64,000 nucleotides of DNA, taken from contig NW_022985453.1 in assembly GCF_010093595.1 (NCBI RefSeq), positions 1,016,897 through 1,080,896 of the forward strand, written 5' to 3'. A program made the translations under genes and the position numbers. Below the pieces are notes generated by a model. That model was not told the origin of the DNA. It was given only the letters and a program-made list of their open reading frames with translations, and did not search any database. This stretch comes from Mytilinidion resinicola (lineage: Eukaryota > Ascomycota > Dothideomycetes > Mytilinidiales > Mytilinidiaceae). Positions 1 to 58,884 of the stretch are shown in pieces. Position 1 is the first letter of the stretch. The number at the start of each line of letters is the position of its first letter.

Positions 1-1399
1 ATAGGCAACGCCCGGAGTCGCTTCGCGTCCAATATGCTCTAGCTTGCTGGTCGAAATCATCAAATATAACACCTCCATTCCCGTAGATGAATGTCATAGT
101 AGCGCCCCCAAAAACACTTTGTACCAACAACTTTCAGACATGAAACGAGCGAGTACCTGTCCGTGCACGACCAACTTCACCAGTGAAGCCTCGTCGGATT
201 GCTTGATCGAGTTCCGCAGCAAGACTCTCACTCTATGATCGGATCGACGAGCCTAAGAGATCGAAAGGATCCTTCATTAGACGCCAGCAGAATGCTGAGT
301 TATTAGTAGGCTAGAGACGCAATCTTAGATTAGATCGTGAATACATTCATCTATTAAAGTTGAAGACCAGGTTTTGGTTCAAGGGACTGGATCTATTTTG
401 CCGGTTTTTCACCCTGGCGGACCACATACGATTATATTATCTAGGAAGTCAATCCCAAAACATTGGCCCGATATTTGACACGGCAAATCTAGACTGCGCC
501 TCTGTACTGCACATAGCAAAAGAAGCTCATAAGCTTTTGTGCACCGTTCAGTCTATTTCGACATCACTGCCAATGACAACATCAGCCTGTCCCCGAGGCC
601 TTCGACACTCGTCCTTTTCGAAAACACTCACATAACTATCCGGCGGGAGGAACACACATGAGATCACTAGTACTTTCGGCTTAATTGGCTCCAAACCACC
701 GAACATAACTCAAGAATATTTTATTCCTGAACATCCCCCACAGCCTAGCAACCAAAAGCTCTTGCCATGTTCGTGCTGATGATCGGACTCATGTTAATTT
801 CCTCCTAAGGTGTTAAAGCACTTATAGGTCTGGAAAGTGGACGCGAATTTCCAGGGAGCTGCCGAAATATTCACTTAATGCAAGATGGGAGGACTTTATT
901 GAGAATTTACAGCTCCCGGATCCTACAGCTCCGACGAAAGTCCGTCACTCACGTGTTCCACATTTTCCTGCACGCTGCCCTATTGCCAAGACAACCCTAG
1001 AATGAGGGCCAGAGAGACCTCCCTATCGCCAATGCTTGGCAATAGGGCGACGTGCAGGAAAATTTGGAACACGTGAGTGAATCAAACCTCCTTATACACT
1101 AGCCTGAAACTCCGTTAGCTGCGTAAATTTCTCTCTGGGACTGCCTATAAGCACGATTTGTCCGCTTGAGCTTGCAAGAGTGGAAAAAGCTGAAAGTTGA
1201 TGGTACCGCCTAAGGATGCTGAATCAACAACTCGCAAAGCATATCGTAGAACGGCAGGAAGATCGAACAGTCTATTAAATAGTATCTTTCCATTTTCCTT
1301 GATCAATCATTAGATGTCAAGCCCAAGCCATAGATTACCTGGCCTAGGACTGCTGGAGCGGCAATCCAACGTCAAAACTGCTATGGAACTTTTGATGCA
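1..1399. other. Gene-free left edge
   Basis: I see no convincing coding region here: open frames are under 100 codons, overlap on both strands and resemble no family I know. A few weak matches to the array boxes described next occur (for example near 200-235), so the array may begin left of the window in a more decayed form. The clearest structure is the hairpin at 945-1080, listed separately. Confidence 0.5.
945..1080. repeat. Hairpin / MITE-like inverted repeat
   Basis: Two 46-bp arms, 945-990 and 1035-1080, are inverted copies that differ at only a few positions and flank a 44-bp loop. The outer ends read TCACTCACGTG / CACGTGAGTGA, so each tip holds a CACGTG palindrome. Diverged relatives with the same tip and the following TTCC..ATTTCC block occur at 49311-49417 and probably near 14155 and 49560-49890, which suggests a small dispersed hairpin family rather than a local structure. 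No target duplication was identified with confidence. Confidence 0.75.
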
Positions 1400-2040
1400 A
1401 GAAGCGGACGTTGAGCCCACTCTATCATTTTGCATTTGCATACACTCTGGAAGATCAACCTGCGGGACATACAGAGGGCTCCTTCTACTGGTCACTCATA
1501 TAAAAGAGGTGCTCTTTTGGTTTTCTTGATCAAATATTAGGGGCCAGGCCGGCTCCATGTAACTGGTTACAAGCCAGTTATAAAACATTAAATCCAATCA
1601 AAAACTCCCGAGCGTGGCTAGATCATGCTAAACCTAAATTAGTTGCGTTTAGCCAAAATGCAGAAGCAGCTACCCATACGATGCTGGTAGTCATGATTTT
1701 TCCAAGCCAGCGCCAGGCCATTCGAGGTTTGTGAGGTCTTTCTATCGGCCACTAGAGGACAAGCCAACCCATGATTTTGCTAACAGTAAGGTTCTAACAG
1801 CTCACCGGACCCCATATCTCAGGACGAGGCCAGCCTATAGCAACAATATCCAGGTACATGGATCAAAGGCCAGAAGCCGTGTACCCCCCTAATTCTCTCT
1901 GGCGAATTTTCATCAGACAGTACCGGTCCATTCGCGCGGATTGAATGGATAGTTGATGAAGGACGAAAGACAGTGCACACCACTTTCCTCTTACTAGCTG
2001 GCAGCTGGCGTAGGAAGGGCAAAGGATCAGTGAGGAAAGC

Positions 2041-2478
2041 GTGAGTTGTATTGAGGTGCTAACGAGTGGCTATATAGTGAATGGAATAGGGGTTGCAGGT
2101 GGCACCGGTTGCAACGGTGGCAACGGTGGCAACTGTGGCAATGGTGGCAAACAACAGGTGAACCTTGTCCAGCTGAGAACTCAGGTTGAAATTGATGTGA
2201 ACTCTGATTCCTATAGATGTCTAGCTCGTTGTTTATATACTAGGGGAAGGAGGGGGGCCACCCCCGGGGGCTTGACGTGGCGGATCTCTTGATGCGTTGC
2301 TAGTTACATCCTGTTACTTGATACAGTACTGATACCGTGCTGCAGCACTGCTGTTGCACTACCTGTTACTTCCTCCTGTATTAGCATGCCATCCTGATGC
2401 GTTACTGGCATATGAGTTGCTGATCCTAGGTTGTAGTGCTGCAACCCGAGTTGAGAAGTGAACCTTGTCCAGCTGAGA
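2041..2478. repeat. Non-array insert with 9-bp repeats and 21-bp direct repeats
   Basis: The A/B boxes are absent here. Positions about 2098-2155 hold a short tandem repeat close to GGTGGCAAC. Directly after it a 21-bp word beginning GTGAACCTTGTCCAG occurs at 2158-2178 and again at 2458-2478, exactly 300 bp apart. The stretch between contains CTGTTACTT and GTTGC words. It looks like a separate repeat inserted into or locally duplicated within the array. Confidence 0.5.
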
Positions 2479-5400
2479 CGCGTGGACAGATGTGCGTAGG
2501 AGCATTCTAGCTGGCTGCCACTAGCTCAGTTTCAAAATGATGTTAGAAATTAACCAAAACTCGAGATCCCAGGACGAGAGCAGCCCACATAACCCAGGGC
2601 AGAATTGTTTGACGAAAGACCAGAGGCAGAGACCACTCCGCTGGCTGACTTTATAGTACTCTTCAAGAGTTTCAGTACCCAGAACTATTTCAAGGGCGAG
2701 TGTGTTCATCCCATTAGGGTTGGCTGACTCAGTTCTAGGACAAAGACCTAGAAGCAGAGCTTCCTATAACCTATACCCTCGATCGTTCTCCAAGCGGCCG
2801 CTGGAGCATCCAATTAAGTCTTCATTTCTTCTGGACAAAGATTATTTCGAAGCCTACTCCATCGTATCTCGCCAAGCCTACGTTTGAAAGAATTTTGGTA
2901 GTCAATCAGTCCCAAAGAGCCCAGAGCAAGAGCAGCCCCCATGAATTAAGCCAGGCTCGTCTTTTATTAGGTTTAACTCCGTGCCAACAGAGCTCAACAT
3001 TCTGCTTCATGCAGTAACAGTACTGGATTTCCTTATGCCTAGTAAGTTCTATGAAGCTAAGGATTGGCTGTGGTATTCTAGATTAGATACTACCGGACAG
3101 GCAACGCAAGCATAGTTCCGGGTTGATATACTTCTATGAAGGATGCAGAAACAGAACAAACTCATACACTTCTGGACCCGACTTGTGGAAACGCGAGACC
3201 ATGATAACTGCTTGGTATACTAATTAATCGCCTCTTGCGAATCATTCCTTTTTGTTGAACACAGAACATAAACTCAGTCCTATGGACGGTTTGAGCCCAA
3301 AGATATTGCTTAGGTGGAAACAAGGCCACTCTAGAAACAATTTCCCGGGCCTGAGCAAAGGAGAGGTAGGGCACGCTCCATCGCCCTAATGCTTAGCAAG
3401 CTATGATATTCTAGCCAATAGGCTATTGCAGGGACGATATCAATCGATTTATCGGACTGTGGTGATTCTCCTTTTAGCTGATGACAGAGGGGACGCCCCG
3501 TTAATTAGTCGGATCTACCATGCTTCTCAAGCAGACACTCGTTTAATGGAAGCTTGCAGTCCTCATTTGATGGCAGACGCAGACGCAAAGTACACTCCAT
3601 AACACCAAAGTCGAGCTTCTTTCAATACTCAAGCCCGTCTTAATGCGACGATAGCAGAATTAATCATCCCATAAGAGTCCTCGAGGTAGTCTTTTTCAAC
3701 GAAGTTCAGAAGCCGCGACCTATCATGGATCGAGCCTAAAGACTTGTTACTGCCAGGGCAAAGCCATGAAAAAGGGTTGCGTGCAGTCTTGAGTAGAGAC
3801 CAGAGTTCCAGCCTAATCCATGGAAATCATGCTGCTCTCACTCTGAAACGCCAGCCTCTAGCAATAGTCCTAGATTGATATCATTCGTTCCATCGCTAGA
3901 ATTCATCCCTCCGCCTTTGGTTCAGGCGGAGGGACAAAGTACCACTCATAGTGCAGCTGTAGTATTATTTTCAGACCAGCAGTAGACCATGTAGTGGTCT
4001 TCAAGTTCGTTATGATGGAATATACCGGGGTAGAGGCCAACAATGCTTCACTTTTCCAACTTCGTTGAAATGCCAGTCCACGACAGCGTTCCTGGAGTAC
4101 GATTGATCGGCCCATGTGAGATTTTCGGTCGCTATTTCGATCAAAGCCGCAGAAGCTGCGCCTCATCCTTTTGCTTTTTGTACGAATCTTACTAGGCTAG
4201 ATACTGATTCATCCCGGAATCCATCATTTGGCCTCTATAAACGGAAAGGCTTAGAACGTAACCCGTCCCCCCTATCCAGGATACCTTAGAGATGGCGGAA
4301 CGTCAACTTATGATAAGTCTACCAGCGCGAGACCGACTGCTCCATGGTTACTAGTCCCTACCAAGTTTGTCTCGTGACTAAGGACCAAGAACGGAGCCCC
4401 ATCCGAGGTCAACTTTCACAATCTTAACGTCTTTAGACAAAAGACTAGAGGCAGAAGCAAAATTCATCGTATGCTAGTATTGATTGGAGGTATTTGTTAA
4501 TAAATCGGCAATCCAGGTGAGAAGTCCAGACCGAGACCAACCATCGTACAGATCGAGCATCTAGATCTTAACTGAAGACTCGCAGGCAGAGTTCCATAGC
4601 GATCCAAGTGGAAGTATTTTTGCCGGCCAAGACTCGCCTATTAGGGTAATGTGTCGAGGGTTTTGATGAAACGCTGTAACGGAATCGGTTCCATGCGCTG
4701 TCTCGCGTTTGCGTTTGATATGATAGATCGTGGACCTCCACCTGAGATCTCAGGGCGAGAGCAGTCCGTAAGAAGAAAGCTGGATCTTAGTTGATCTACT
4801 ACCCAGATGCATAGGTCAATGTTGGTCGGCCATGTGTAGTATTTGGTTTCTCCACATTGACACCAGCCGATCATAAGATATGATTCCCGTTCTGGAAGGA
4901 AAAGCAGATATGGGCCCTACTCCATCGCGTTTAGTTCGTTATAAGTTCGAGGTGATGGATCGTCATTCTACACGAGAGATTCCAAGGCGAGGCATATAGG
5001 ACAAAATCAAAAGGGGGTGACATTTCGCTAAAAGTAATAAAACGGTGCAATGCACATAGTATGCCACTTTGACGGTTCTTAGATGACCACAGGCGGAGTC
5101 CCAGTCATACGGGTCGCTATTGTGTTGTTTTCGATAATGAAGCGTCAAGTTGAGAAAAGAATTCCAGGGTGAGAGCAGCCAATGAATGGACGCACCCGTA
5201 ATGTTTCAATAAGTTTTGTTACAATGATAGAGAGTCGAACAAAACTGAAAAGTCTAGGGCAAGGGCGGCCTATGAAGGTCGTTACGAGTGCCTCTTAACT
5301 AAATGCTCAGAAGGAGAGTCCCATGTTGAATAGCCAGCAGAAGTTTCTGCAGTACGCCCGCTCATCACATATCCCGAGGAGTAATTTGATAGACCCAGGA

Positions 5401-7506
5401 AGACCGGAATTGGAATCCGCCTCGTGGCCCCGGCCCCAGATGAAGGATGAAAGACTCTGGTGCAAAACCGAACCTATTTCGATTAAGCTCGGGTGCGGTT
5501 TTTGAAAAAGAACAAAGAGGCAGAGCCTCCCCAACGCCCATGGGACTTGGTTTGTCAACTCTTCAGGCCAACACGGCCATCGCAAGGTGCTTCAGGTAAT
5601 CTTCATAGGGGACCAAAGTCGAAGTTAACCGCATAACACTTTGCTTATCCTAAGCCCACGATCCTTGGCATGGACCAACATGAAATATCCCAGAGCAAGA
5701 GCAATGATTCTCCCATTCGCGGGTATGGATATGGTATCTTAGCCACAAACTTAATACGGGGCTCTATTGACGACTTCGATGCTAATTCTTTCCTAAGCTA
5801 ACAGCAGCTCATGACGCTTATCCTTTTTGCGAGTGAAAGACCGACGGCAGAGCCCACAACATGGACTGTCGCCTGAGACTTATTCATAAAAGTACATTTC
5901 CGACTGGATTAAAGATCATAAGGCAAGACCTGCACATGATTCGAAATACGAAATTGTTCTTGAGTGGAAATCCAGAGCGACGCGCACTCAATCGACATTT
6001 ACCACCAGTTAGCTTGAGTTATGCCAACATAAACCCAGAACAAAATTTCAGGGACGAGAGCAACTCATCGAAAGAGGGTAGATTGAATGTTGATAGCAGG
6101 TCCAGAGGTGAAGCCCACCCCATTCCTCCCAATATACCGGAATGTCATGATTGTGAGCCGTCAGCCTAGCGCCGAATTGCTAGCGAAAAGTTGCTATCAA
6201 TGGGTACCAGTAAGGTCTTTGATTGGAGATCTAAAGAACAAAGGGCCCCATGAGTTTCTTTCTCCAATTCTGGTCATACCTCTGGTAGTTCCCAGAGATC
6301 GAAGATCCTAGGGAGCGGGTAGCTTATTCTCCTATACCAACTACTTTCTCGACCAGAGTTTCAGAGACGGCGCGCACTCCATCAAACTCTTTGTCCTTGT
6401 TTGTTCATAGACCTTAACTGTCGTTCAGAATCAAAGATCCCGGGGCAAGAACAGCTCATGAAGGTTGGACGGATCGATTTTTCTTTAAACATCCAGAGCC
6501 GGCGCGGGCTCCATCAGTTATCCTTCTGCGGTGTTCAGAATGATAAGAAGGGTTAACACCTCCAAAGCTCTCATATTTATAGTAGCCTACATATTGTTCA
6601 TATTCATGACGGAATATCAGAGGAAGACCCCGTCCCAATCCATGTTGTGTGAGTATTTGCTGTTTTAGAAGATGCATCATCCTGCATACCAAAGATGCCT
6701 GTGCGAACGTAGCTCATACATGATAAGTGGGAAGGTTTCTTATCGAATATTCCGAGGTAGGACGGAAACCAATTTCTTTCGTTCGTTCGTAGCTTCGCGT
6801 CGGAGATTTGATTCATATCAGAGATTCTGGAAAGAGAACAAAACATCGAACGGACGAGGTGAAAGCGTTGATCAGCGATCCATAGACGGAGCTCACTCCA
6901 CTTCCCTCTACACACCTGACTGCCGAGTTCAAGAAGTAAGAACTGAGATAAGACTCCCAGGGCTCGAGCAGCGCATGTGCTGTGAAGACTAAGTTTTTGA
7001 TAGGAGATTCCAGAAGCAGAACGCACTCCATGGAGTTCGATATTGAATCTTTTCATAGTCTCCCGCGGTCACCTCGACTAAAGGTCCCGGGACGTCGGCC
7101 CATTAGGAGATATAAATGGGAAATTTTAAAGCGGAGATCTGGGGCGCTGCGTACTCCTTATTGTAGTCGTCAATGATGTGTTGGTGTTAATGGAATGCCT
7201 GCGTCTACCAAAAGTTTCAGGATTAGGGTAGTCCATATGTTAGATTGTAGGGAAAGTCATGACTGATGGCCCAGAAACGGAATGTACACTATAACGCTTT
7301 TATTTTTTCTTCTGTATTAAAGATAAAGCGTCATCCCTTAACAAACATTCTGGAGCAAGAGCAGGCCATGACACCTGGTCTAACATCGTTTTCATCGGAG
7401 ATTAAGACGCAAACTTTTCCACATGAGTAGTACTGATGACTGGATCTGTTGTGTTTGAAATATTAGGGTGTTGACTGAGACCAAAAATCCCGGGCCGAGA
7501 GTATCT

Positions 7507-7716
7507 GTGACGGACCTAGGCCTCGTTCCTAGCTATGAGCTTAGCACGTTCCCAGGTCACGTGCTCGAGTCACGTGCTCGCTAGGAACAATCGTTGTTCC
7601 GCCATCGACGCGTCTAGATAGCATCGCGAGCAGCCTCGTACTCCGGCTCCTTGCAGCACGTCTTGTAATACAATCCTACTGCTCGTCTCTACACCTCCGT
7701 ACTAGCCGCCCGTGAC
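7507..7716. mobile_element. MITE-like insertion inside the array
   Basis: The regular A/B spacing breaks here for 210 bp. The insert is flanked by AGTATCT at 7500-7506 and 7717-7723, a likely 7-bp target duplication. Its ends are roughly inverted (GTGACGGACCTAG against GTCACGGGCGGCTAG read from the other side). Inside are an 11-bp direct repeat TCACGTGCTCG and an inverted pair GTTCCTAGC/GCTAGGAAC. Removing it restores array spacing. Coding capacity is nil. Confidence 0.55.
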
Positions 7717-10110
7717 AGTATCTCACAAAACGGGAGCACACGATTCCTTGATCGGAAATTCAGAGGCAGAGACAAACCCATTCGGCTTTTCTCTTATAAT
7801 TTTCGATAAAGAGGCTGCCAGTCTATACTAGAAAGGTAAGGCGAGACCAAACCCATATTTCTCCAGCACGACGTGGTTTAATCGGAAATCTCGAGGCAGA
7901 TACACTCCCAAGGTTTCTCCTGCCGTTTGTTAGAGATGAAGCCACATCTGTACCAGGATCCCCAGGGCAAGAACAACTCATGGGGGCTGATGCTGTACGT
8001 ATTTGATTAGAGATTCGGACCAGGAGCACGCTCCATCAAAAGTTGACTATCCATCTTTTGCGAGATAAAGCCACTACCTCTACCACAAATCTCGGAACGA
8101 GAGGAATCCATGACAATCCCCGGTAGACTCTTGTGTACGAATGACACAGAGACAGAGCACACCCATTGAATTGTCCAACATCTCTTTAGAAAAATCGGAC
8201 GTAGCTGAAGACGCCAACGCGAGGGCAGTTCATGAAGAGACGGTAGCTAATGTTTTGATCAGAGATCCATACTGGTACGACGCACACTCTTATAGTTGAG
8301 TCTCCAGCCAAGCAGCGAAGCCCGCCATTGAATTTTCGGTCCCTTGCTTCTCGATGACAGATTCTGGTCTGGGGCCCAGAGGCGGAACACGTCCCATATC
8401 GGGCTGATGGGAGCGTGCTATAAGAAGATACGCCCCTATCCAAAAGACCAAGAGCGAGACCACGCCATGCGCACGTGTTAGCTTTATCTTTGGACCGGAG
8501 AACCACAGACAGACATGTTCCGCTCATTTTCCTAGTGTGTATACTCGAGCTCGAAGCCCCGGTCGAAGATTCCAGAGCAATGCCAGTCCATTCTGTGGTA
8601 ACATACTACTAGATGACAGACTTTTATCCAAGAACCCAGAGCGGATCGCATTCCAGAAAGCCCCAACGTCCACGTTTTGCACCTACAGTACTAGGTCACA
8701 AGTCTAGGCACACGGAGTTATCATTGCTTGCTTGGCTTCATTCTTGCACACTTGACACCACTGTGAGGAGCAGCCCAGCGAGTGCGTAGCCACTTAGCCA
8801 AGAGGGAGACTAATTTACACTGCTTGAAACTTGACATCGCGCCTAGATTTTTGAAATCTACGGGGGTACCCCAAGCATTGGTAAATGGGTGTGCAAAGAC
8901 TGATGGCCTGTCGCTGTAAGCACCAGGCCGAAGCCCCCAGAGCGAGGAAAGCTTATTTCTTCTGATTGAGGGGTATTTGATAGCAGCCGCAAAGATGAAA
9001 CGCACTCCATTCTTGTGTCTACGTCTGTAGTTTATTGGGAACTAGCCTTCGGCCGAGAGGCCCAGAGCGACACCAGCCCATATTGACTTTCTCCAGATGG
9101 TTGAAAGACGGAGGCGGCGCACACTCCATAATCTGCTCCTAAAACTGCCAAATCGATGGCATGGTCGAGATATCCAGGGCTCAACCGACGCATAAGAAGT
9201 GGGTTTCCGCGTCTCTTGAATAAAACGAAGAAACAGAACGCACTCCATGGTGCTGACGAGATTGCGGTTGAAACTGAGCCCTAACCAAGTCGTCTAGAAT
9301 GAGACTAGACCATGGTTTCGTTCTTCTTTTCATGTTGAAAGAAACAGCTGCGGAGCATACTCTATGCTATTTCGTGAGGTTAGAGATTGAAGTTGAGGCC
9401 CAAAGAAGAGTCCAGAACCGGACCGCCCATATGGCTTCTTCCCTAGAAGTTTTGATGAAAGGCGCCGAGGCAGAACGTACTCCATGCACCGCTTAGACGC
9501 TTGGTGTTAATTACCCAATCGAGGGCTCCAAAACGAGCTCGGCGCGCATCAGATGTTTGTATGATGACGCGATGAAGGAACTGGAGGCAGAAAACACTCC
9601 ATCGTCCATTCTCGTTAAAGAAATTGAAGTTGATGCCCCGGTCGAAGAGTGCAGAGTGACACCAGCCCATCGCCTAAGCAATCGACGTTTTTTGATATAA
9701 GGTAAAGAGGCAGAACGCACTCCATCGGCTCGAGTTCCTCTACCTGGTGAAATTGAACCATCAATCGAAGATCACCTAGCTCAACCAGCCCATATAAATT
9801 TTCTCCTACTTTTGGGGGTGAGTGACACTGCGGCAGAGTGCGTTCAATTCCCGGCCCTTCCCTTCTCATGTATTGGATTTTCTCCACCAGTCGAAGATCC
9901 CCGAGCAGGACCAGGCCACATGATTGTAGTGTATCCGTGAATTCGATCAAAGACACAGAGACAGACCGCCTTCTATGCTAGTCTTCAAGGAAATTTGATG
10001 ATGCAAGCACCACCCCACCACCAAGACTCCAGAGCGAGACCAACTCATCGCTCGAACGACAGATACTTCTTGATCAAACACCCACGCAGAGCCCACCCAC
10101 CTACTCCACC

Positions 10111-10440
10111 CCATAGTGATCTTCTGCCACAGATTTGGAACTCAACCCAGCCCAAACCCCGGCACAGCCACCACACCATCTCCCTTCCCCATCGTAAGAC
10201 TCCACGATAGCTCTTGAACACCCCTTTCAAGTCGCCAAGCCCTCCCTTCCCATCCATAATAGGTTTTCACCATTGTTCTCGATCTCCGTTCCTCCCCTTC
10301 CCACTCCTAAACACCCCCTCTGCCGAACTCAAACTTTCGGGGGGCGACCCCATTCCTATATACCTCCCAGCTCCTGCCTCGGCTGAATCGTTTCTCCGAC
10401 CCCCGCCGATCTCGCTCCGTGTGCCGCCGATGGAGCGGTG
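10111..10440. other. Pyrimidine-rich spacer between two arrays
   Basis: This stretch is C/T-rich on the + strand (runs such as CCCTCCCTTCCC) and holds no box of either neighbouring array. Short overlapping open frames on both strands look like low-complexity by-products. No gene is called. Confidence 0.4.
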
Positions 10441-10549
10441 AGCGGGTTGGCCTATCGGAGGGGACCGGAGATATTAGGAAAGGGGATCGGGTAGGGAAGG
10501 CCTGTGACGATGGCTGGAGGGCTTGCGTGGGCGAATGGGAAAGTGGAAG

Positions 10550-11190
10550 GAGACTCGCATGTGAAGAAAAAGGAAAGGAACGGGGAGAAAGGGGCACGGG
10601 GTGGGAGTCGGGGAGGTTTGAGGTTACACGCCGACGTCTTGAGGAGAGCGGATGGGCGAATCGGATAGAAGAATAGCTTGGCATGTGGAATAGAAGGGGA
10701 GTGTGACGAAGCGCGGGACCTAGAATGTAGCGGCGTGAGGGGCTGTTCGCGGTTGCGAGGCCTCCGATTTGCTGAGAACAATGAGGTGGGAATCGGGCAT
10801 GTGGGAAGGGATGAGAATGAAGAAGCTTTAGTGTTACGCTGATGCTTTAGAGGGCTCCGATTTGCTTAGTGTCAGGTGATGGAACGGAGACACGTGAGAT
10901 TGAGACGGAGACTGGGAAGTTGATGATGGAAGGCTTGCGAGCTTCTCAGAGAGCGGAATGTAGAGAGGCACGTGAAGAAAAGGGCCCACGGGGACAGGGT
11001 CGGGATCTCATGAAGACAGACCGCTTTCCAGATTGCTTCGGATCCGCAGAATGCGGTAATGGAAGAGTGACATGCGAAGGAAAGAAGGTATGAGAAAACG
11101 AATGAGAGGTCACGAAGACAGACAGTCTTTTTGAACACTTCCGAATCGCTCAAAGTACGATAATCGAAGATAGACACGTCAAGGAAGGGA
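10550..11190 (+). repeat. Second degenerate tandem array, ~100 bp
   Basis: A different motif recurs: CTCCGATTTGCT, then GGTAATGGAA-like sequence, then a CAYGTG-AAGGAA box. The CATGTG/CACGTG cores lie at 10558, 10682, 10798, 10891, 10969, 11071 and 11175, with spacings of 124, 116, 93, 78, 102 and 104. Linkers are G/A-rich and diverged. It is separate from the A/B family but has the same architecture: weakly conserved box, diverged linker, one orientation. No reading frame stays open through it. Confidence 0.6.
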
Positions 11191-11419
11191 ACAAAGGACG
11201 AAATTAGGGGAGTCACCGAAGACACACCAACGGGTTGGAAGTAATTCTATTTGTAGATTGAAGCAGTATTGTCACCAAACACCAGAACCCTTGAAGCTTT
11301 TGCCCTACCTTTGTTATATGACTGCTTCATTTAGTGCTCGCAGCACGTGGTATACGCATCATCGCATCAAACCGTATCGCGTCAGACCGCCCGGCATACT
11401 CACCCTTCACGATAACCTC

Positions 11420-12398
11420 TCACGCGGTCTGTGCCTGAGCTTGGGGTGCGGCGGGGCCTCCGGTATTTCGCTGCTTACTGACAGTATACTCGGCGAGGAA
11501 ATCAGGATCGTTCTCGAACTCCTCCTTGACCTATCACATCATTCCATTAGCTTCAGCTCAATACGAGCGCCACCGCCATTGACACTAGCTAAAGAGAGGG
11601 GATACTCACAATATCCAACCCCCCAACCAACTCTCCACCAACCCAGAGCTGCGGAAATGTCGGCCAATCTGCATACTCTTTCAATCCCTGCCTGACATCA
11701 TCGTCTGCCAGGATATTAAAGAACCCATACCGCACACCCTTCTCCCTGAGCAGCGAGCTAGTCTGTCGACTAAACCCGCACTGCGGCGCCGACGGCGTCC
11801 CCTTCATGAACAGCATCACGGGCGCCGCCTTGACCAGCTCCGCTAGGCGCGCGAACAGCTCCTCCTTTGTCTCCTTTGCGCCAGAGCTGTACTCGGGCGC
11901 AGTCTTGGGGTCATTGTTGGAAGGCGCGTATGATGCGAGGTTCTTGGTGCCGTTTGTGCCGTTCGTTGCGCCTGTTTCGAGATGGGTTGTGGGTGCTGCA
12001 GGCTTTGTGACTGATTGCGCCGGGGGGAGACCGAGGTTGGAGGCTTCTCCTGCGCTGCCGGCGCCAGCGTACTTCTCGACTGCCGCCCGTACCTTTGCGG
12101 CGTCGGAGCCGGAGACGGTCTCGAGAACCGAGCCGTCCTTTTGTAGCACGATGTAGGGGACCGCGGTGACGTCGTATTGCTCCGAGATCTCGGGGAGCTC
12201 TTCGGCATTAAGGGAGAGGAAAGCGAGGGGCGCGGAGGAGGGGTATGTGGAGGCGAGGGTGGAGAGGACGGTGGACATCTGCTTGCAGGGCGCAGCCCAG
12301 GGCGCGTGGAAGTATATCACCGCGACGGTAGCGGGCGGGAGAGAGGTGATGGTTGATGCGAAGTCGGCCTCGGTGGGGATCTCTCTGAGGGAGGCCAT
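11420..12398 (-). CDS. grx4: Monothiol CGFS glutaredoxin, Grx3/Grx4 type
   Basis: Cytosolic/nuclear [2Fe-2S]-binding glutaredoxin of the Grx3/Grx4/PICOT family, which delivers iron-sulfur clusters and reports iron status to transcription factors. Two exons: 12398-11610 and 11530-11420, with a 79-bp intron (GTGAGT..TAG) in phase 0. The intron matters: without it the frame ends in a spurious VSIPSL tail, whereas the second exon supplies the expected VKEEFENDPDFL continuation. The product is about 299 aa. An N-terminal thioredoxin-like domain (about 1-112) carries WAAPC at 34-38, a one-cysteine version of the thioredoxin site. A Ser/Thr/Asn-rich linker leads to the glutaredoxin domain from about 175, with CGFS at 207-210 and the glutathione-binding WPTFPQLWVGGELVGG segment. 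The C-terminus is an Ala/Gln tail. Transcribed divergently from the Rpf2 gene. Function assignment is firm. Confidence 0.95.
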
Positions 12399-12724
12399 AG
12401 CGGCGGCGGTTGTAGGTATCGTCGAGGCTCTTATGATAGTGAGCAGAGTGTTCGAATGGAGACGTGGCTGAAGAGAGAGCAGAAGGTGGGCTATTCGAGG
12501 TGATGAAGACGCAAAAGCGATCAGATGGATTGATTAGAAAAAGAACTGACGTGCTCCGTCCCGCCTCCGAGCAATGCCCAGGAGCCAGGTGCCCCGCCTC
12601 GGCCGCCATCTGCGGCTTCTCCTCGGCATGCCGTTTCGCCGGCCCGAGAAAAAGAGGAACTCTTGGCATCTTCACTTTCTGCAACCCCGTCGCGAGAGTG
12701 CGCCGCATCACCAACATCGCCACC
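12399..12724. promoter_or_regulatory. Shared divergent promoter, grx4 / rpf2
   Basis: Only 326 bp separate the start codons of the two divergent genes, so both promoters and 5' UTRs must lie here. I see no clear TATA box. The rpf2 start has a good fungal context (CACCATG). Confidence 0.6.
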
Positions 12725-13795
12725 ATGTTGCGTACAATGTAAGACCATAGTTCCAGAAAAACAAGCACACAGCTAACGCCCCCTCCAGAAAACCCAAGAG
12801 CGCCCGCACGAAGCGCATCCTCGAGAAGCGCGAACCCCAGGTGCACGAGAATGTGAAGCAATGCCTCTTCCTCAAGGGCACCTCTTCGAGCGAAATCCTG
12901 AAGCTTGCAGTTACCGGTACATATGCAACACCCCTCGCATCGATATCCTCACTCTAATGTATCTCTAGACCTCAACTCCCTCCTCAAACCCCACACGAAA
13001 AAATTCACAAAACCCAACCCAATCCACCCCTTCGAATCCGTTGACTCGCTCAACTTCCTCTCCCTTAAAAACGACTGTTCGCATCTCGTCCTCTCCCACC
13101 ACAAAAAAAAGCGCCCCCACACCCTCACCTTCATCCGCACCTTCGCCCACACGGTCCTCGACATGCTCGAGCTGCACATCGACCCCGATACCTTCCGCAC
13201 CATCTCCCAGTTCAAGAACAAGAAGTGCGCGGTCGGCTTGAAGCCAATGCTTGCCTTCTCCGGGACCCCATTCGAGGGGCCGGTGGACAGTCGGTATACG
13301 CTCGCGAAGAGCATGCTGCTAGATTTCTTCCGGGGAGTCGAGGCCACAGGTGTGGATGTGGAAGGGTTGCAGTATATGATTCATTTCTCCGCATCGGATG
13401 AGATACCTGGAGAGCCTGCGCCTATTATCCGTATGCGCGTGTACCTTGTCAAGACGCGCCGCTCTGGGCAGAAAGTCCCCCGCGTGGAAGTCGAAGAGAT
13501 GGGTCCTAGGATCGATTTCAGCGTCGGCCGCGAGCAAGTAGCAGAGGAGGCGGTCATGAAGACGGCGCTGAAGAAGCCGAAGGGCTTGGAGCCGAGGACG
13601 AAGAAGAACATCACGACGGATGTGGTGGGTGATAAGATGGGGAAGATTCATCTCGGCAAGCAGGATTTCGCAAACTTGCAGACGAGGAAGATGAAGGGGT
13701 TGAAGAGGAGTCGGGAGGAGAGGAAAGCTGGAGAGGAGACGGACGCGGAGGAGGACGGAGGCGTCGAGGTCAAGAGGGTGCAGTTGGAGGCATAG
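12725..13795 (+). CDS. rpf2: Ribosome production factor 2 (Brix domain)
   Basis: Nucleolar assembly factor that, with Rrs1, brings the 5S RNP into pre-60S ribosomes. Three exons: 12725-12738, 12789-12916 and 12969-13795. The 50- and 52-bp introns have GTAAGA..CAG and GTACAT..TAG ends. Joined, they give 322 aa, close to the 344 of the yeast protein. The N-terminus is basic (MLRTIKPKSARTKRILEKRE) and is followed by the conserved block ending in LNSLLKPHTKKF. The Brix core covers roughly residues 30-240, with SHHKKKRPHTL, the GLKPMLAFSG motif and FHFSASDE-like sequence. The C-terminal tail is Lys/Arg-rich, as usual for nucleolar proteins. The first exon has only 14 coding bases and would be missed by simple ORF calling. 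Divergent from grx4. Confidence 0.94.
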
Positions 13796-27598: not shown

Positions 27599-27864
27599 AA
27601 GATTCCATTCACACCCTCCCACGTCCTCCTCATCGGCGCCGCCGTTGCCGAGCACCTCATCCGTTCCGGCTCCAAAGTCGTCGCCGTCGGCCGCCGCTAG
27701 GACCGCCTCGACGCCTTTGTGCAGAAACATGGTGCCGAGAAAGCGAGCACTGTGAAGTTCGACATCGGCGACGCGGGGGGGATGGATAGGTTCGTCTCGA
27801 CGTAAGAAGACCCCGTGATGAAGGGAAGTGGGGGGGGGGGGGGGGGGGGGGGGGGGAGGGGGGG

Positions 27865-27915
<51 letters not shown>

Positions 27916-52200: not shown

Positions 52201-53687
52201 TGTCACGGTGACGATGTATCGGGCATTTAAACGCGAGATAGACAAGTATCAGATTCAAAGAAGGATAACTACGTGCTATTACCGTGGTTGGTTACAAGAC
52301 GTCAAGATGCCGAGTTGAATTAGGGACGGGAGCCAGGCTATATACAAGACAAGAAAAGGGGCTCGCATATAGCGCGTGGCCCTGACATAATCGGGAATCA
52401 GGTGGCAGGCGCGTGGCGCACGCGTGCGCACGTATGCGGGAACAAGGTGTCAGGGGATTGATGCTTAGAGGGAGGCCATAATTAATACCGTGACAGTACC
52501 TCCCTCTTAAATGCAAGCGAAGCGAGATAGAAAGGACGGGTAACAGGAAACAGGAGAAAAAAAATTTCTGTGAAATTCCGCTCCAGGCTCTAGCTCTAGC
52601 CTCTGCAGGAGCCCTTCACACAGAGAACGTTCTCGTGAAAGCTTCCTCGCTTCATTGCTTCTAGCTAGCTCGTTGACTTCCAGCATAGCCAAGCTCTAAC
52701 ATCCAGTCTGTGTTGCAGTCTCTGTTCGGACTAGAGACGCGTATATCTGCTTAATTTATTGTACTCATCTCGCAGCGCTCTAGGACGCCATCCACGGCGC
52801 CCTTCTGGCTACCCCAGGTCCCCCAAAAAATTGCCCCTGTTTTTAGGCAGAAAAAGGGGGCAGAAACGGGTGTTTTTGCAGGCATATCGGCACAAAACAG
52901 GGTCGGTTCGGGCTCAATCGCCAAGGCGAGAGCGTTCGGTTGCCAGGGAGGGTCCTAAGGGCCCTTATCTGACATCGTATTCGGGTGGCAGTATATTGCC
53001 AGCAGGCAGCGACAGGCGATGCGGCGGACGAGGCAGCGGACGCAGGTTATCTAGCAGTACGGTGCTAGCGATCGGGGCAGCAGTACGGTGCTAGCGATCG
53101 GGGCAGCAGTATGGTGCTAGCAATCGGGACAGCAGTATGGTGCTAGCAATCGGGGCAGCAGTACGGTGCTAGCGATCGGGGCAGCAGTACGGTGCTAGCG
53201 ATCGGGGCAGCAGTATGGTGCTAGCAATCGGGACAGCAGTATAGTGCTAGCAATCGGGGCAGCAGTACGGTGCTAGCGATCGGTCGCAGTATTGTTGCGG
53301 GCGTCGTGTCTGGGTTCAGCAGTGTCGTTGCGGGCGTCCAGGTCGGTACTCATCTCAGGCTCTGGCACGCCCTTGTGAGGATCTTGACGTAATATCACGG
53401 TGACGATGTATCGGGCATTTGAACGCGAGATAGACAAGTATCAGATTCAAAGAAGGATAACTACGTGCTATTACCGTGGTTGGTTACAAGACGTTAAGAT
53501 GCCGAGTTGAATTAGGGACGGGAGCCAGGCTATATACAAGACGAGAAAAGGGGCTTGCATATAGCGCGTGGCCCTAACATAATCGGGAATTAGGTGGCAG
53601 GCGCGTGGCGCACGCGTGCGCACGTATGCGGGAACAAGGTGTTAGGGGAGTAATGCTTAGAGGGAGGCCATAATTAATACTATAACA
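52201..53687 (+). mobile_element. Short non-coding LTR element (TRIM-like), copy 1
   Basis: Two 295-bp LTRs, 52201-52495 and 53393-53687, differ at few positions and end TGTCACGG..CGTGACA. The flanks are ATAAT at 52196-52200 and 53688-53692. The 897-bp interior has no retrotransposon protein: its open frames are short and contain the 26-bp minisatellite. No tRNA-type primer site starting TGG is seen after the 5' LTR. Total 1487 bp. It is much less RIP-altered than the DNA around it, so it is probably a recent arrival moved by another element's proteins. Confidence 0.85.
53055..53283 (+). repeat. 26-bp minisatellite inside TRIM copy 1, 9 units
   Basis: Unit close to CAGTACGGTGCTAGCGATCG + GGGCAG, nine copies. 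Variants alternate between TACGG/GCGATC and TATGG/GCAATC, a CpG-to-TpG/CpA pattern. The same array in copy 2 has six units, which explains the whole 78-bp difference in length between the two elements. Confidence 0.9.
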
Positions 53688-53692
53688 ATAAT

Positions 53693-56600
53693 ATAAAGGT
53701 AAAGTATAGTAATATACTTTATAAGTAAGCGGTCTACCTATATTATATTATTTCTTTAGGTTTTTTTAGTAGTTATTAAGGTTATAAAATATTATATATA
53801 TAGATATTATATAATCCCGGGCTAAGGGTTTTTCCGGCGCTTTACGCGCTCTACTATATAAATAGCTTATAGCCGGAGCCCTTTTCCTTTCTACGCAACT
53901 TTATTATAAGGGCTATAAGCCTAAAATAATAGATTATATTAAGTATAAAAAAATTTATTAAAAATCTAAACTATAAATATATACTGCCTATATACTTTAT
54001 TATTAAGGAAGTAATATAACCGTTCTATTCTTCTTTATATAGTATAGCCGTGCTGTATTATTATACTTATATTATAATATTATACTATATTACTATACTA
54101 TAATATAAAAAAGGCTTTATAAAAGGCTGCGTAAAATAGAAGGAATATATAGCTAATTAAGCAGCCGTTTAAGCGGCTAGGTTATAAAAATATATATTAG
54201 TATACGGTTTAATAAATCGGATAGAGTAGGGCAGCTTAGCCAATTCCTAGAAATAGAGATTTAATTTTAGAATAGTTTCTAGTAACGGCTTATAAACTAG
54301 AACGGATAATATAGAATAGAAAGAATAAATTTAGGCGTTATAAATTAAACGGGGTAAAATAGCCGGGCTAGTTTTAGTATAGAATTTAGGTTTTTAGAAT
54401 AGAACTAATTCTATATTAAGTTCGTAAACCCGGTAGGCTATATAAGTTAAATAGGCTATACGAATTAGCACTATATTAGTTCGAATTAATATAAGGAATA
54501 AGCTAAGCCTTATAAAGTAGTTAATAAGAAAAAGTCTAGGGCGTAGCCTGTAACACTTATTAATAATAATATAACCTTTTTCCTTAGCTATAGTTCTAAT
54601 ACTAGGTTATATTATTTAAGGAAACCTAGAAACCTAGAAACCTTAATTTCTTTTTAATTATATAGCTATACTACTATATATATATACCTATATAGGTTAT
54701 TAGCTTTAAAATTTAGCTATATAGTTACTAACTATATCTACTAATATACTTTATACTCTATACTCTATATTCTATACTAATATACTTACTTACTACCTAT
54801 TAATAAAGCCTAGGCCTTATTATATATAGCTAGATATACCCGAGTTTAATAATATACTAGGCGGCAGATAACCTTATTACTTTAATATTCTCTTTAGTGC
54901 AGGAAGGGTTAGTTATTACTAAGGCGCGCCTTACCCTACTTATATATAAATATAGTATAATAAGAAGAATAATACTTAAGGAAATATATTTAAAGAAAAT
55001 AGAAAGGTATAAGTTCTAGTAACTTCTTACTTATTTTTATAAGAAAAGAATTGCACTAATAAAAGGCGTAAGCGCGTTAGTAAAATACTTAACACTACTA
55101 TTACCAACGCGTACCTACCTAGCAAATTCCTTAATACCTAGAACTCTACTACTATTATAGGCAACTTTTAGAAGGTAATTAGGCCTATTAGCTTAAACTT
55201 TCTACTTAATCTATATAATATTAGTGCTTTTATTAAGTAGATAGGTATAATAGGTTATTTCTTCTATACTTTCTAAGTGCTTATATAAGGCTAAGTGTAG
55301 GTTAAGTTGTTATTAGGGTGTAATAGTCTTTAAAAGGTAAAGTAAATTAATATTAGGTATAAAATAGAGTTACTTCTAATAGGTATTATTAAAGTCTTAA
55401 GTTATATTATAGCCATACGTTTGCTTATATAACACGTGCCCGATAGTTACGTAATTAGGGCTCCGCGGAACGGATTAATATTGCTCTAACCTTTGGTTTA
55501 TAACAGCGTTAAACCTAGAAACCTTTTTCTTTCTTATATTTATCTTTTATTAATATTAATACAACTTATTTTAATTCTAACCTTAAGCCCTAATATAAGA
55601 TAAATACCCTTCTAGCTTTCGGGAGTAATAGAAGTAACCTAGAAATTTTTTCTTTATAATAGAGCGCGCTTTTATAATTAACTATTACCTATATAGCGGA
55701 AAAACCTATTAGCAGCGCTGTAAGTATAGCCCCTAATAACGCGATTTAACTCTCTATATAGAGTTAAGTAATAAACCTTTTAACTATACTAGCGTCCGGA
55801 GGGCCTCTATAATAGAGAGGTAGTAATAGTACTCTAGAAAGTCCTTACTAATTCGATAGCTTTACCTGCGCGCGAAGTTCTTACCTTCTACTATTTACTA
55901 TTAAAAGTATAGAAACTATAGTCTACGTATATAGTATTAATAATAGCCTGCGCGCCTAGTATTACACCTTTTACTATTATAAGTATAGAGACTATAGTCT
56001 ATATATATAGTATTAATAATAGCCTGCGCGCCTAGTATTACACCTTTACTATTATAAGTATAGAAACTATAGTCTGCGTATATAGTATTAATAACAGCCT
56101 GCGCGCCTAGTATTATACCTTTACTATTATAAGTATAAAAACTATAGTCTACGTATATAGTATTAATAACAGCCTGCGCGCCTAGCGTTATACTTTTACT
56201 ATTAAAAGTATAGAGACTATAGTCTGCGTATATAGTATTAATAACAGCTTACGCGCCTAGTATTACACCCTTTACTATTATAAATATAGAGACTATAGTC
56301 TACGCATATAGTATTAATAACAGCCTGCGCGCCTAGTATTATACCTATTTACTATTATAAGTATAGAGACTGTTATCTACGTATATAGTATTAATAACAG
56401 CCTACGCGTTTAGTATTAACCCTATCTTGCTATTATATTATATAGAAACTATAGTCCGCGTATAATAGTATTAATAATAGCCTGCGCGCCTAGTATTATA
56501 AATAGAATAAATAATAGCCTGCGCGCCTAGCTTTATCCCCTTTACTAAGGTCTTACCGAATTTAGTAAATAGCCTGTTCTAGCTAATTAGAAGTTTTCTT

Positions 56601-57475: not shown

Positions 57476-58884
57476 TATTATAGTAACGATATATCGGGTA
57501 TTTAAACGCGAGATAGATAAGTATTAGATTTAAAAAAGGATAACTATATACTATTACTATAGTTAGTTATAAAATATTAAAATACTAAGTTAAATTAGGG
57601 ACAGGAGCCAGGCTATATATAAGACGAGAAAAGGGGCTTATATATAGCGCGTGGCCCTAACAGAATTAGGAATTAGGTAGCAGGCGCGTGGCGCACGCAT
57701 GCGTATATATGCGGGAATAAGGTGTTAGGGGATTAATACTTAGAGGGAGGCTATAATTAATACCGTAACAGTACCCCCCTCTTAAATGCAAGCGAAGCGA
57801 GATAGAAAGGACGGGTAACAGGAAATAGAAGAAAAAAAAATTCTGTAAAATTCCGCTCTAGGCTCTAGCTCTAGCCTCTGCAGGAGCCCTTTATATAGAA
57901 AACGTTCTTATAAAAGCTTCCTTACTTTATCGCTTCTAGCTAGCTTATTAACTTTTAGTATAGCTAAGCTTTAATATCTAGTCTATATTATAGTCTCTGT
58001 TCGGACTAGAAACGCGTATATCTGCTTAATTTATTATACTTATCTCGCAGCGCTCCAGGACGCTATCTACAGCGCTTTTCTAGCTACCCTAGGTCCCCTA
58101 AAAAATTGCCCCTGTTTTTAGGCAGAAAAAGGGGGCAGAAACAGGTGTTTTTGCAGGCATATCGGCATAAAACAGGGTCGGTTCGGGCTTAATCGCCAAG
58201 GCGAGAGCGTTCGGTTGCCAGGGAGGGTCCTAAGGGCCCTTATCTGACATCGTATTCGGGTGGCAGTATATTGCCAGCAGGCAGCAACAGGCGATGCGGC
58301 GGACGAGGCAGCGGACGCAGGTTATCTAGCAGTACGGTGCTAGCGATCGGGGCAGCAGTATAGTGCTAGCAATCGGGGCAGCAGTACGGTGCTAGCAATC
58401 GGGGCAGCAGTATAGTGCTAGCAATCGGGACAGCAGTATAGTGCTAGCAATCGGGGCAGCAGTACGGTGCTAGCGATCGGTCGCAGTATTGTTGCGGGCG
58501 TCGTGTCTAGGTTTAGCAGTGTCGTTGCGGGCGTCCAGGTTAGTACTTATCTCAGGCTCTGGCACGCCCTTGTAAGGATCTTAACATAATATTACGGTAA
58601 TAATATATCGGGTATTTAAACGCAAGATAGATAAGTATTAGATTTAAAAAAGGATAACTATATACTATTACTATAGTTAGTTATAAAATATTAAAATACT
58701 AAGTTAAATTAGGGATAGAAGCCAGGCTATATATAAAATAAGAAAAGGGGCTTATATATAGCGCGTGGCCCTAATAGAATCGGGAATTAGGTAGCAGGTG
58801 CATGGCGCATACGTGTGTATATATACGGGAATAAGGTGTTAGGGGATTAATACTTAAAGAAAGGCTATAATTAATACTATAATA
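57476..58884 (+). mobile_element. Short non-coding LTR element (TRIM-like), copy 2
   Basis: Second copy of the element at 52201: LTRs 57476-57770 and 58590-58884, each 295 bp, flanked by CTATA at 57471-57475 and 58885-58889. Length 1409 bp, shorter than copy 1 by exactly three 26-bp units (six here, about 58329-58480). Both LTRs carry many C-to-T and G-to-A changes, whereas parts of the interior are close to copy 1, so RIP hit it unevenly. It inserted into the gypsy element described next. Confidence 0.88.

What the first reader, a model, noticed from the sequence alone, without database searches (positions are those of the whole stretch)
1399..10110. A ~9-kb one-strand array of 20-bp boxes every ~60 bp, unlike any repeat type I can name
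Two related boxes alternate with strict phase (box B ends 9012, 9132, 9249, 9367, 9484, 9602, 9724) over on the order of 70 dimers, while linkers between them are nearly unrecognisable. A neutrally decaying satellite should lose boxes and linkers equally. Retained boxes plus retained spacing point to constraint on short sites: binding sites for a protein, units of a long RNA, or phased chromatin. The divergence also lies below the similarity at which RIP acts, and no RIP signature is visible, so the array survives in a RIP-active genome. This is the best candidate for an undescribed system here; function is unknown.
Basis: partly seen in the sequence, partly recalled or inferred. Interest (0 to 1): 0.9.

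Follow-up and report, generated by a model that had tools for sequence, protein, structure and literature searches.

The report
Conserved oriented two-box fungal DNA array
A fungal chromosome carries, at one place as far as could be searched, a nine-kilobase non-coding array in which two related 21-letter boxes alternate in one direction; the boxes have been kept while the DNA between them has become random, which points to many selected binding sites of unknown use.

Summary
On the + strand of about 1311-10101, box A (~CCCAGAGCGAGACCAGCCCAT) and box B (~CAGAGGCAGAGCGCACTCCAT) alternate. The chain fit places 109 boxes, 71 at 12 bits or more; 15 control fits placed one or two. Matrices fitted to one half alone find the other half. 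B follows A by exactly 55 bp in 14 of 41 intervals; the next A comes after ~75 bp in the middle part and 62-72 bp at the 3' end. Over all 41 A-B units, boxes are 49-50% identical pairwise and the linker after A is random (25%), also between neighbours and with gaps allowed. A uniformly decaying satellite does not do this. The array is non-coding, without conserved RNA fold, Rfam gathering-score or tRNA match, or RIP signature; no second copy was found in the 47-Mb genome, which is Lophium or a near relative. Best reading: an old, purifying-selected cis array of an oriented two-box protein-binding element; a multivalent long RNA is the main rival. Function is inferred; no other species could be compared.

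The parts
1311..10101 (+). whole array of alternating box A and box B (one orientation)
   Evidence: chain fit, 109 boxes placed, 71 at >=12 bits; two B placements after 10101 (10130, 10159) break the order and are left out of the extent
9061..9081 (+). box A, strongest copy (26.1 bits)
9109..9129 (+). box B of the same dimer (22.6 bits)
9650..9725 (+). representative A-B element with exact 55-bp offset (A 9650, B 9705)
   Evidence: best model match 9623-9725
6439..6514 (+). representative A-B element of the middle part with exact 55-bp offset (A 6439, B 6494)
6956..7031 (+). A-B element with exact 55-bp offset (A 6956, B 7011); B is the strongest box B of the fit (25.2 bits)
10028..10048 (+). 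last strong box A (25.4 bits), 3' end of the array
1405..1425 (+). one of the first box B copies at the 5' end (15.6 bits)
1990..2560 (.). interruption without boxes; contains a GGTGGCAAC minisatellite (2098-2150) and a dispersed short element
2179..2457 (+). dispersed short element inside the interruption, flanked by 21-bp direct repeats (2158-2178, 2458-2478)
7507..7745 (.). second interruption without boxes (a weak A-like box lies just before it at 7487-7506); 7505-7745 matches only itself in the genome
10440..11290 (+). second, different degenerate repeat array directly downstream; relation to the first unknown
   Evidence: self-alignment 60% over 397 columns, E 1e-10, no clear match to array 1; 10120-11300 matches only itself in the genome

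Best explanation
An old, non-coding array of an oriented two-box element (box A, 34 bp, box B, with a T-rich stretch and a GAT-AAGA shoulder before box B), found at one locus and kept by purifying selection on the boxes. Shown: boxes conserved, linkers random, one strand, no second copy found, no open frame, no conserved RNA fold. Inferred: each box (about 17-19 bits, measured in-sample) is a DNA-binding site for a sequence-specific, multi-domain protein (for example a many-fingered C2H2 protein) that may bind A and B as a pair; many weak, individually dispensable sites concentrate it at this one place. There it would act as a cis landmark (enhancer, boundary, or replication- or pairing-control region). 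Linkers carry no information and have diverged freely, which also keeps the array below the similarity that RIP is thought to need.
For: Sharp 3' edge of both boxes: the last box column holds 1.44 (A) and 0.87 bits (B), the next base 0.14 and 0.03 bits; inside, columns hold 0.49-1.44 (A) and 0.15-1.45 bits (B); 36 A and 43 B boxes of >=10 bits. Pairwise identity over all 41 A-B units 0.491 (A box), 0.503 (B box), 0.249 (linker after A), 0.265 (linker after B), random 0.251. Gapped comparison of 41 A-B linkers: mean z 0.02 +/- 0.04 over 820 pairs, no excess at lag 1 or 2. In simulation the box identity corresponds to roughly 0.4-0.5 and the linkers to about 1.3 or more substitutions per site. 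Fixed orientation. No conserved base pairs in 26- and 48-sequence alignments, which disfavours a structured RNA. 113-152 stop codons in each of six frames. No box enrichment elsewhere: with <=3 mismatches 12 of 19 box-B and 19 of 30 box-A matches lie outside the array, against 16 and 23 for the reversed-pattern controls.
Against: No binding protein, no transcription or chromatin data, no second species. A factor with ~100 sites at one locus and no excess elsewhere is unusual. Helical phasing is not evident: B-to-A distances run through 62-79 bp. Box scores in the same dimer are not significantly correlated (rho 0.21, p=0.20, n=41), so the A-B pair as functional unit is not shown. The 5' side of each box fades into shoulders rather than ending sharply. 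Units were found by their boxes, which inflates box identity; with all 41 units it is 0.49-0.50 instead of the 0.53-0.54 of my first 25. Cross-anchoring limits the bias: anchored on A alone, 8 of 21 box-B columns reach p<0.01; anchored on B alone, 7 of 21 box-A columns do.
Confidence: 0.42

Rival explanations
1. The array is the body of a long non-coding RNA whose ~60 repeated modules bind a protein (or pair with another RNA), like the repeat regions of XIST; boxes are the RNA-binding modules and linkers are unstructured spacers.
For: One locus found, one orientation, T-rich stretches on the + strand (12 T5+ runs against 4 A5+ runs); freely diverged linkers are natural for multivalent RNA. XIST A-repeats are likewise repeats varying in sequence, separated by less conserved U-rich linkers (PMC10870365, passages seen).
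Against: No conserved RNA structure; no Rfam match at the gathering score; 21-nt boxes of 17-19 bits are longer than usual single-stranded RNA-binding motifs (general knowledge). Pairing with rRNA could not be tested.
Confidence: 0.28
2. Decayed satellite: an ancient tandem repeat with no function, whose boxes look conserved only because units were found by their boxes.
For: Regional period (130 then 120 bp) and weak neighbour likeness of B boxes (Mantel r -0.137, p 0.001) and A shoulders (p 0.011) show tandem-duplication history; box scores fall towards the 5' end; spacing can be inherited passively; gapped local self-alignments of 60-61% over 223-357 columns occur at 9110-9921 and 7748-8112.
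Against: Linkers of neighbouring units are random while boxes are not; the contrast survives cross-anchoring and a fit on one half alone; 3' box edges are sharp.
Confidence: 0.13
3. A cluster of many small RNA genes (snoRNA, tRNA-like or guide RNAs), one per box, with variable guides in the linkers.
For: Constant boxes with a variable stretch of ~16-18 nt before a T-rich stretch; a TGAT before box B recalls part of a C box (C/D consensus recalled).
Against: ARAGORN finds no tRNA, Rfam nothing at gathering score; no full C or D box in the column tables; no conserved fold. A 2.7-kb piece of the array finds no other genomic place at E<=10, though short matches of about 20 nt would be missed.
Confidence: 0.05
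4. Linkers are kept different by selection: similar units would be recognised by RIP or pairing and destroyed, so a needed tandem array is forced to diverge everywhere except in the boxes.
For: RIP-like DNA in the same window and none in the array, C5 DNA methyltransferase domains in the genome; RIP in Neurospora can read interspersed homology (PMC4858203, abstract and passages). Neighbouring A-B linkers of the middle part are nominally less alike than shuffles (lag-1 z -0.47 +/- 0.18, 11 pairs).
Against: Over the whole array lag-1 linkers are as random as expected (z -0.12 +/- 0.17, 40 pairs), so freedom from constraint is enough; the middle-part value is one of many comparisons.
Confidence: 0.12

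Closest known systems
Primate alpha satellite with alternating A/B monomers carrying pJ-alpha and CENP-B boxes (recalled, not looked up)
   Same: two related monomer types alternate head to tail, each with a short protein-binding box
   Different: alpha satellite is homogenised, present at centromeres generally and similar over its whole monomer; this array was found at one locus, is random between boxes, and lies between genes in DNA of ordinary GC
C. elegans meiotic pairing centres bound by ZIM/HIM-8 (PMC9071541, passages seen)
   Same: 12-base motifs enriched in a chromosome region and bound by C2H2 proteins as cis landmarks
   Different: there shorter motifs, shown as densities per 100 kb at chromosome-end regions; here a 9-kb, one-orientation, ordered two-box array, binder unknown
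XIST A-repeat region (PMC10870365, passages seen)
   Same: repeats that vary in sequence, separated by less conserved U-rich linkers, single locus
   Different: [quoted passage not shown] here ~100 boxes, no conserved fold, transcription unknown
Drosophila Responder-type satellites and Xenopus 60/81-bp rDNA enhancer repeats (recalled, not looked up)
   Same: alternating related short repeats in one orientation
   Different: high copy-to-copy identity and different genomic setting

Membership tests
Satellite or minisatellite array | head-to-tail repeats with similarity over the whole unit | tested here: not met
   only boxes and, weakly, shoulders and the T/GAT stretch are similar; A-B linkers mean z 0.02 over 820 pairs; Tandem Repeats Finder reports no ~120-130-bp array here
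Satellite or minisatellite array | concerted evolution: neighbours more alike than distant copies | tested here: inconclusive
   absent in A-B linkers, A boxes (p 0.12) and B shoulders (p 0.32), weak in B boxes (r -0.137, p 0.001) and A shoulders (p 0.011)
Protein-coding repeat gene | open frame or 3-base-periodic units | tested here: not met
   113-152 stops in each frame, longest open run 155 codons; 55-bp offset is not a multiple of 3
Rfam-described structured RNA or tRNA cluster | covariance-model or ARAGORN match, conserved pairs | tested here: not met
   in 1-10600 at E<=1 only two matches, both below their gathering scores: 957-1068 + (the palindrome, mir-4436) and 9857-9927 - (Six3os1_3, E 0.96)
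CRISPR-like array | near-identical repeats with unique spacers | tested here: not met
   boxes only 49-50% identical pairwise over 41 units; dimer alternation
Centromeric satellite with protein box (alpha-satellite type) | present on many or all chromosomes | tested here: not met
   no second locus by patterns or DNA search; model R1 finds none in 41 other loci, 193,608 bases of which ~12 kb are counted twice; the model could not be run genome-wide
Pairing-centre or other C2H2-bound landmark | bound by a sequence-specific protein; deletion changes chromosome behaviour | not testable with these tools
   needs bench work
Long non-coding RNA with repeat modules | stable transcript across the array | not testable with these tools
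   no RNA data held
RIP-mutated repeat | high TpA/ApT and low (CpA+TpG)/(ApC+GpT) | tested here: not met
   0.74-0.87 and 1.19-1.26 in the array, against 1.60-1.71 and 0.40-0.62 at 42-48 and 53-64 kb

The most novel reading that the evidence does not exclude
A single-locus chromosomal landmark built from about 100 oriented, individually weak sites for a dedicated DNA-binding protein, in which the genome's repeat-destroying defence (RIP) has selected for maximal divergence of everything but the binding boxes: a RIP-proof tandem array.
Probability: 0.18. Interest if true: 0.85.

Novelty: new variant of a known kind. Interest (0 to 1): 0.6.

Why it matters
Tandem arrays usually stay alike through homogenisation or decay evenly. 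Here ~100 short sites appear to have been held by selection for so long that nothing between them is recognisable, in a genome with RIP-like DNA. If confirmed in relatives it would show a long cis element (or RNA) in a filamentous fungus with a very redundant site code, and a natural way for a repeat array to live with RIP. It is directly testable by comparison of sister species, transcript data and probe pull-down.

Tried and rejected
Plain autocorrelation shows the array only faintly; box profiles show it clearly. Examined and set aside: protein-coding repeat, tRNA and known RNA families, structured RNA, RIP relic, array copies elsewhere, the exact box B in viral contigs (none), and look-alikes at L014 (two weak B-like sites, no model match) and L056 (A/C-rich, 6% T, which may by itself explain its self-similarity). 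A remembered likeness of the boxes to 5S rRNA and to the tRNA B box found no support in Rfam or ARAGORN. A survey of sequence already held for other degenerate arrays flagged L056, AT-rich L006 and L007 (direct and inverted alike), and more weakly L017 and L040, which I did not follow up; it is a small, pattern-chosen sample. Literature: no paper on such an array was seen with the term sets (15 of 40 listed); only titles and starts of abstracts were seen, in an open-access library, so this is no proof of absence. Complementarity to rRNA could not be tested.
Full report
Setting. The window lies at contig C17:1016897-1080896 of a 47.1-Mb, 44-contig genome (contig length 1,221,752). The Rpf2-like Brix protein at 12902-13795 is 99% identical over 93% of the query to one of Lophium mytilinum; the next best named hit, Glonium stellatum, is 71%. 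So the organism is Lophium or a near relative; the longest contig given for that hit (2,436,711) differs from ours, so it may be another assembly. The array lies between genes: on the left, in L002, a HIT-domain ORF (4085-5341) and unassigned ORFs; on the right a thioredoxin-glutaredoxin ORF (11589-12533, minus) and the Brix ORF.

Is it there? A fit that alternates two 21-base matrices places 48 A and 61 B boxes between 1311 and 10179. The last strong box is A at 10028; B placements at 10081 (8.2 bits), 10130 (12.4) and 10159 (10.1) follow, the last two out of order, so I give 1311-10101 as the extent. Seventy-one boxes reach 12 bits. The same procedure on 15 controls (minus strand, 3 mononucleotide shuffles, 5 loci in both orientations, 1 other window stretch) gave total scores of -2 to 11 and 1-2 boxes, against 1011 and 109. 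Because matrices fitted to the array favour it, I fitted each half alone and scored the other at a control quantile of 0.99995: 12 A and 13 B hits in the 5' half (0.26 expected each), 15 A and 15 B in the 3' half (0.18 each), none on the minus strand there. An earlier version with matrices taken from halves of the whole-array fit gave 11, 14, 16 and 18, with one minus-strand hit. The starting consensus of the fit was read by eye from this array, so the halves are not wholly independent of it.

Anatomy. Box A reads about CCCAGRGCGAGASCAGCCCAT, preceded by a shoulder ACC-AAGAT; box B about CAGAGGCAGAGCNCACTCCAT, preceded by a T-rich stretch, GAT and AAGA. The two look like relatives that share GATCC...CCAT (my reading). 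A to B is 53-57 bp in 30 of 41 intervals and exactly 55 in 14; without any spacing prior, 18 of 33 A boxes of 12 bits or more have their best B at 53-57 within an 85-bp search range, 10 of them at 55. B to A is looser and regional. After box B the T-rich stretch recurs weakly about 19 bases on.

Boxes against linkers. Over all 41 A-B units pairwise identity is 0.491 (A box), 0.503 (B box), 0.335 and 0.341 (shoulders), 0.305 (T/GAT stretch), 0.249 (linker after A) and 0.265 (linker after B), with 0.251 expected for random bases. Adjacent units are hardly more alike than all pairs (A box 0.499, B box 0.518, linker after A 0.242); A shoulders are somewhat (0.385). My first count, on 25 chosen units, gave 0.529 and 0.540 for the boxes and 0.243 for the linker after A. 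With gaps allowed, 41 A-B linkers give mean z 0.02 +/- 0.04 (820 pairs), lag 1 -0.12 +/- 0.17, lag 2 -0.29 +/- 0.18; 32 B-A linkers, which contain the T/GAT stretch, give 0.71 +/- 0.05 with little dependence on distance (lag 1 1.03 +/- 0.25, lag 2 0.85 +/- 0.23, lags above 5 0.66 +/- 0.06). Local gapped self-alignments of 60-61% over 223-357 columns occur three times in 9110-9921 and once at 7748-8112; they span several boxes, and the A-B linker test shows no excess in the 3' part (mean z 0.12 +/- 0.21). Anchoring on A alone marks 8 of 21 box-B columns at p<0.01, and anchoring on B alone 7 of 21 box-A columns.

What this means. In a simulated star-like decay, box identity of 0.49-0.53 corresponds to about 0.4-0.5 substitutions per site, and the linker result to about 1.3 or more. 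Boxes therefore evolve roughly three times more slowly; choosing units by their boxes biases this upward, and saturation of the linkers biases it downward. Uniform neutral decay is rejected. Spacing is not an independent proof: 14 of 41 exact intervals lies within the range kept passively in simulation (13-53% for indel ratios of 0.1-0.02). Weak neighbour likeness in B boxes (Mantel r -0.137, p 0.001) and A shoulders (p 0.011), not in A boxes (p 0.12) or B shoulders (p 0.32), and the regional periods, are traces of tandem growth.

Not a known element by these tests. No Rfam family at gathering score in the window; no tRNA; in 1-10600 at E<=1 only two matches below their gathering scores, one of them on a palindrome upstream of the array; no consensus base pair in two alignments; 113-152 stops per frame. 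RIP indices of the array are near those of the gene-bearing 11.5-27 kb (0.67 and 1.24), while 42-48 and 53-64 kb are strongly RIP-like. C5-methyltransferase domains occur at three loci of the genome; I did not assign them to RID or DIM-2.

One locus, as far as searched. Box-B pattern with up to 3 mismatches: 19 matches, 7 in the array, 12 elsewhere, reversed-pattern control 16. Box A: 30 matches, 11 in the array, 19 elsewhere, control 23. DNA searches with 741 and 2701 bases of the array find only themselves. A 106-position sequence model built from 26 units finds 48 matches in the window at E<=1, all on + and all between 1378 and 10098, and none at E<=10 in 41 other loci, 193,608 bases with about 12 kb counted twice; these loci are the places of the pattern hits plus flanking contig. 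More diverged copies elsewhere cannot be excluded, as the model could not be run genome-wide.

Age. A short element sits at 2179-2457 inside one interruption, between identical 21-bp direct repeats; 39 further matches of 238-285 bp at 90-98% identity are listed for it, a lower bound since 40 of 399 candidates were scored. Boxes lie on both sides, which suggests that the array is older than this insertion.

Mechanism. I favour DNA-binding sites over RNA modules because the boxes are long and specific (about 19 and 17 bits summed over the columns, in-sample), sharply bounded on the 3' side and unstructured; this is a judgement, not a result. Papers: on RIP recognition, abstract and passages (PMC4858203); on nematode chromosomes and on XIST, passages; on RIP across fungi, passages, with no mention of Lophium in its main text (PMC12543289). 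Alpha satellite, Responder and Xenopus repeats are recalled.

Noticed in passing
window 10440-11290: A second, different degenerate repeat array (motif about GRCAYGTGAAGGAAAGG, units of roughly 80-125 bp by eye) directly downstream of the first; 60% self-identity over 397 columns, found only here in the genome. A TATATA stretch near 10357 and a change from C-rich to G-rich lie between the two arrays.
   Followed up: partly
window 2158-2478: Short dispersed element of ~275 bp with 21-bp flanking direct repeats and 39 other listed copies at 90-98% identity, a lower bound; perhaps short enough to escape RIP.
   Followed up: partly
window 945-1080: Palindrome with 46-bp arms (93% complementary), hairpin- or MITE-like.
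   Followed up: no
window 27830-27915: An 86-bp almost pure G tract.
   Followed up: no
L056 1-3020 (C19, around 996174): Three kilobases with extreme strand asymmetry: A 44%, C 32%, G 18%, T 6%; cause unknown.
   Followed up: partly
window 42000-64000 and L006, L007: AT-rich block beginning about 32 kb right of the array, strongly RIP-like at 42-48 and 53-64 kb; L006 and L007 are AT-rich by base composition only.
   Followed up: partly
window 53053-53283, 58328-58480, 55894-56498: Tandem repeats inside that block: a 26-bp unit at two places and a 75-bp unit in ~8 copies.
   Followed up: no
L017 (C5, around 657833): More direct than inverted self-similarity (8.9 against 1.0 matches per 500 bp) in a survey of held loci; not looked at.
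   Followed up: no
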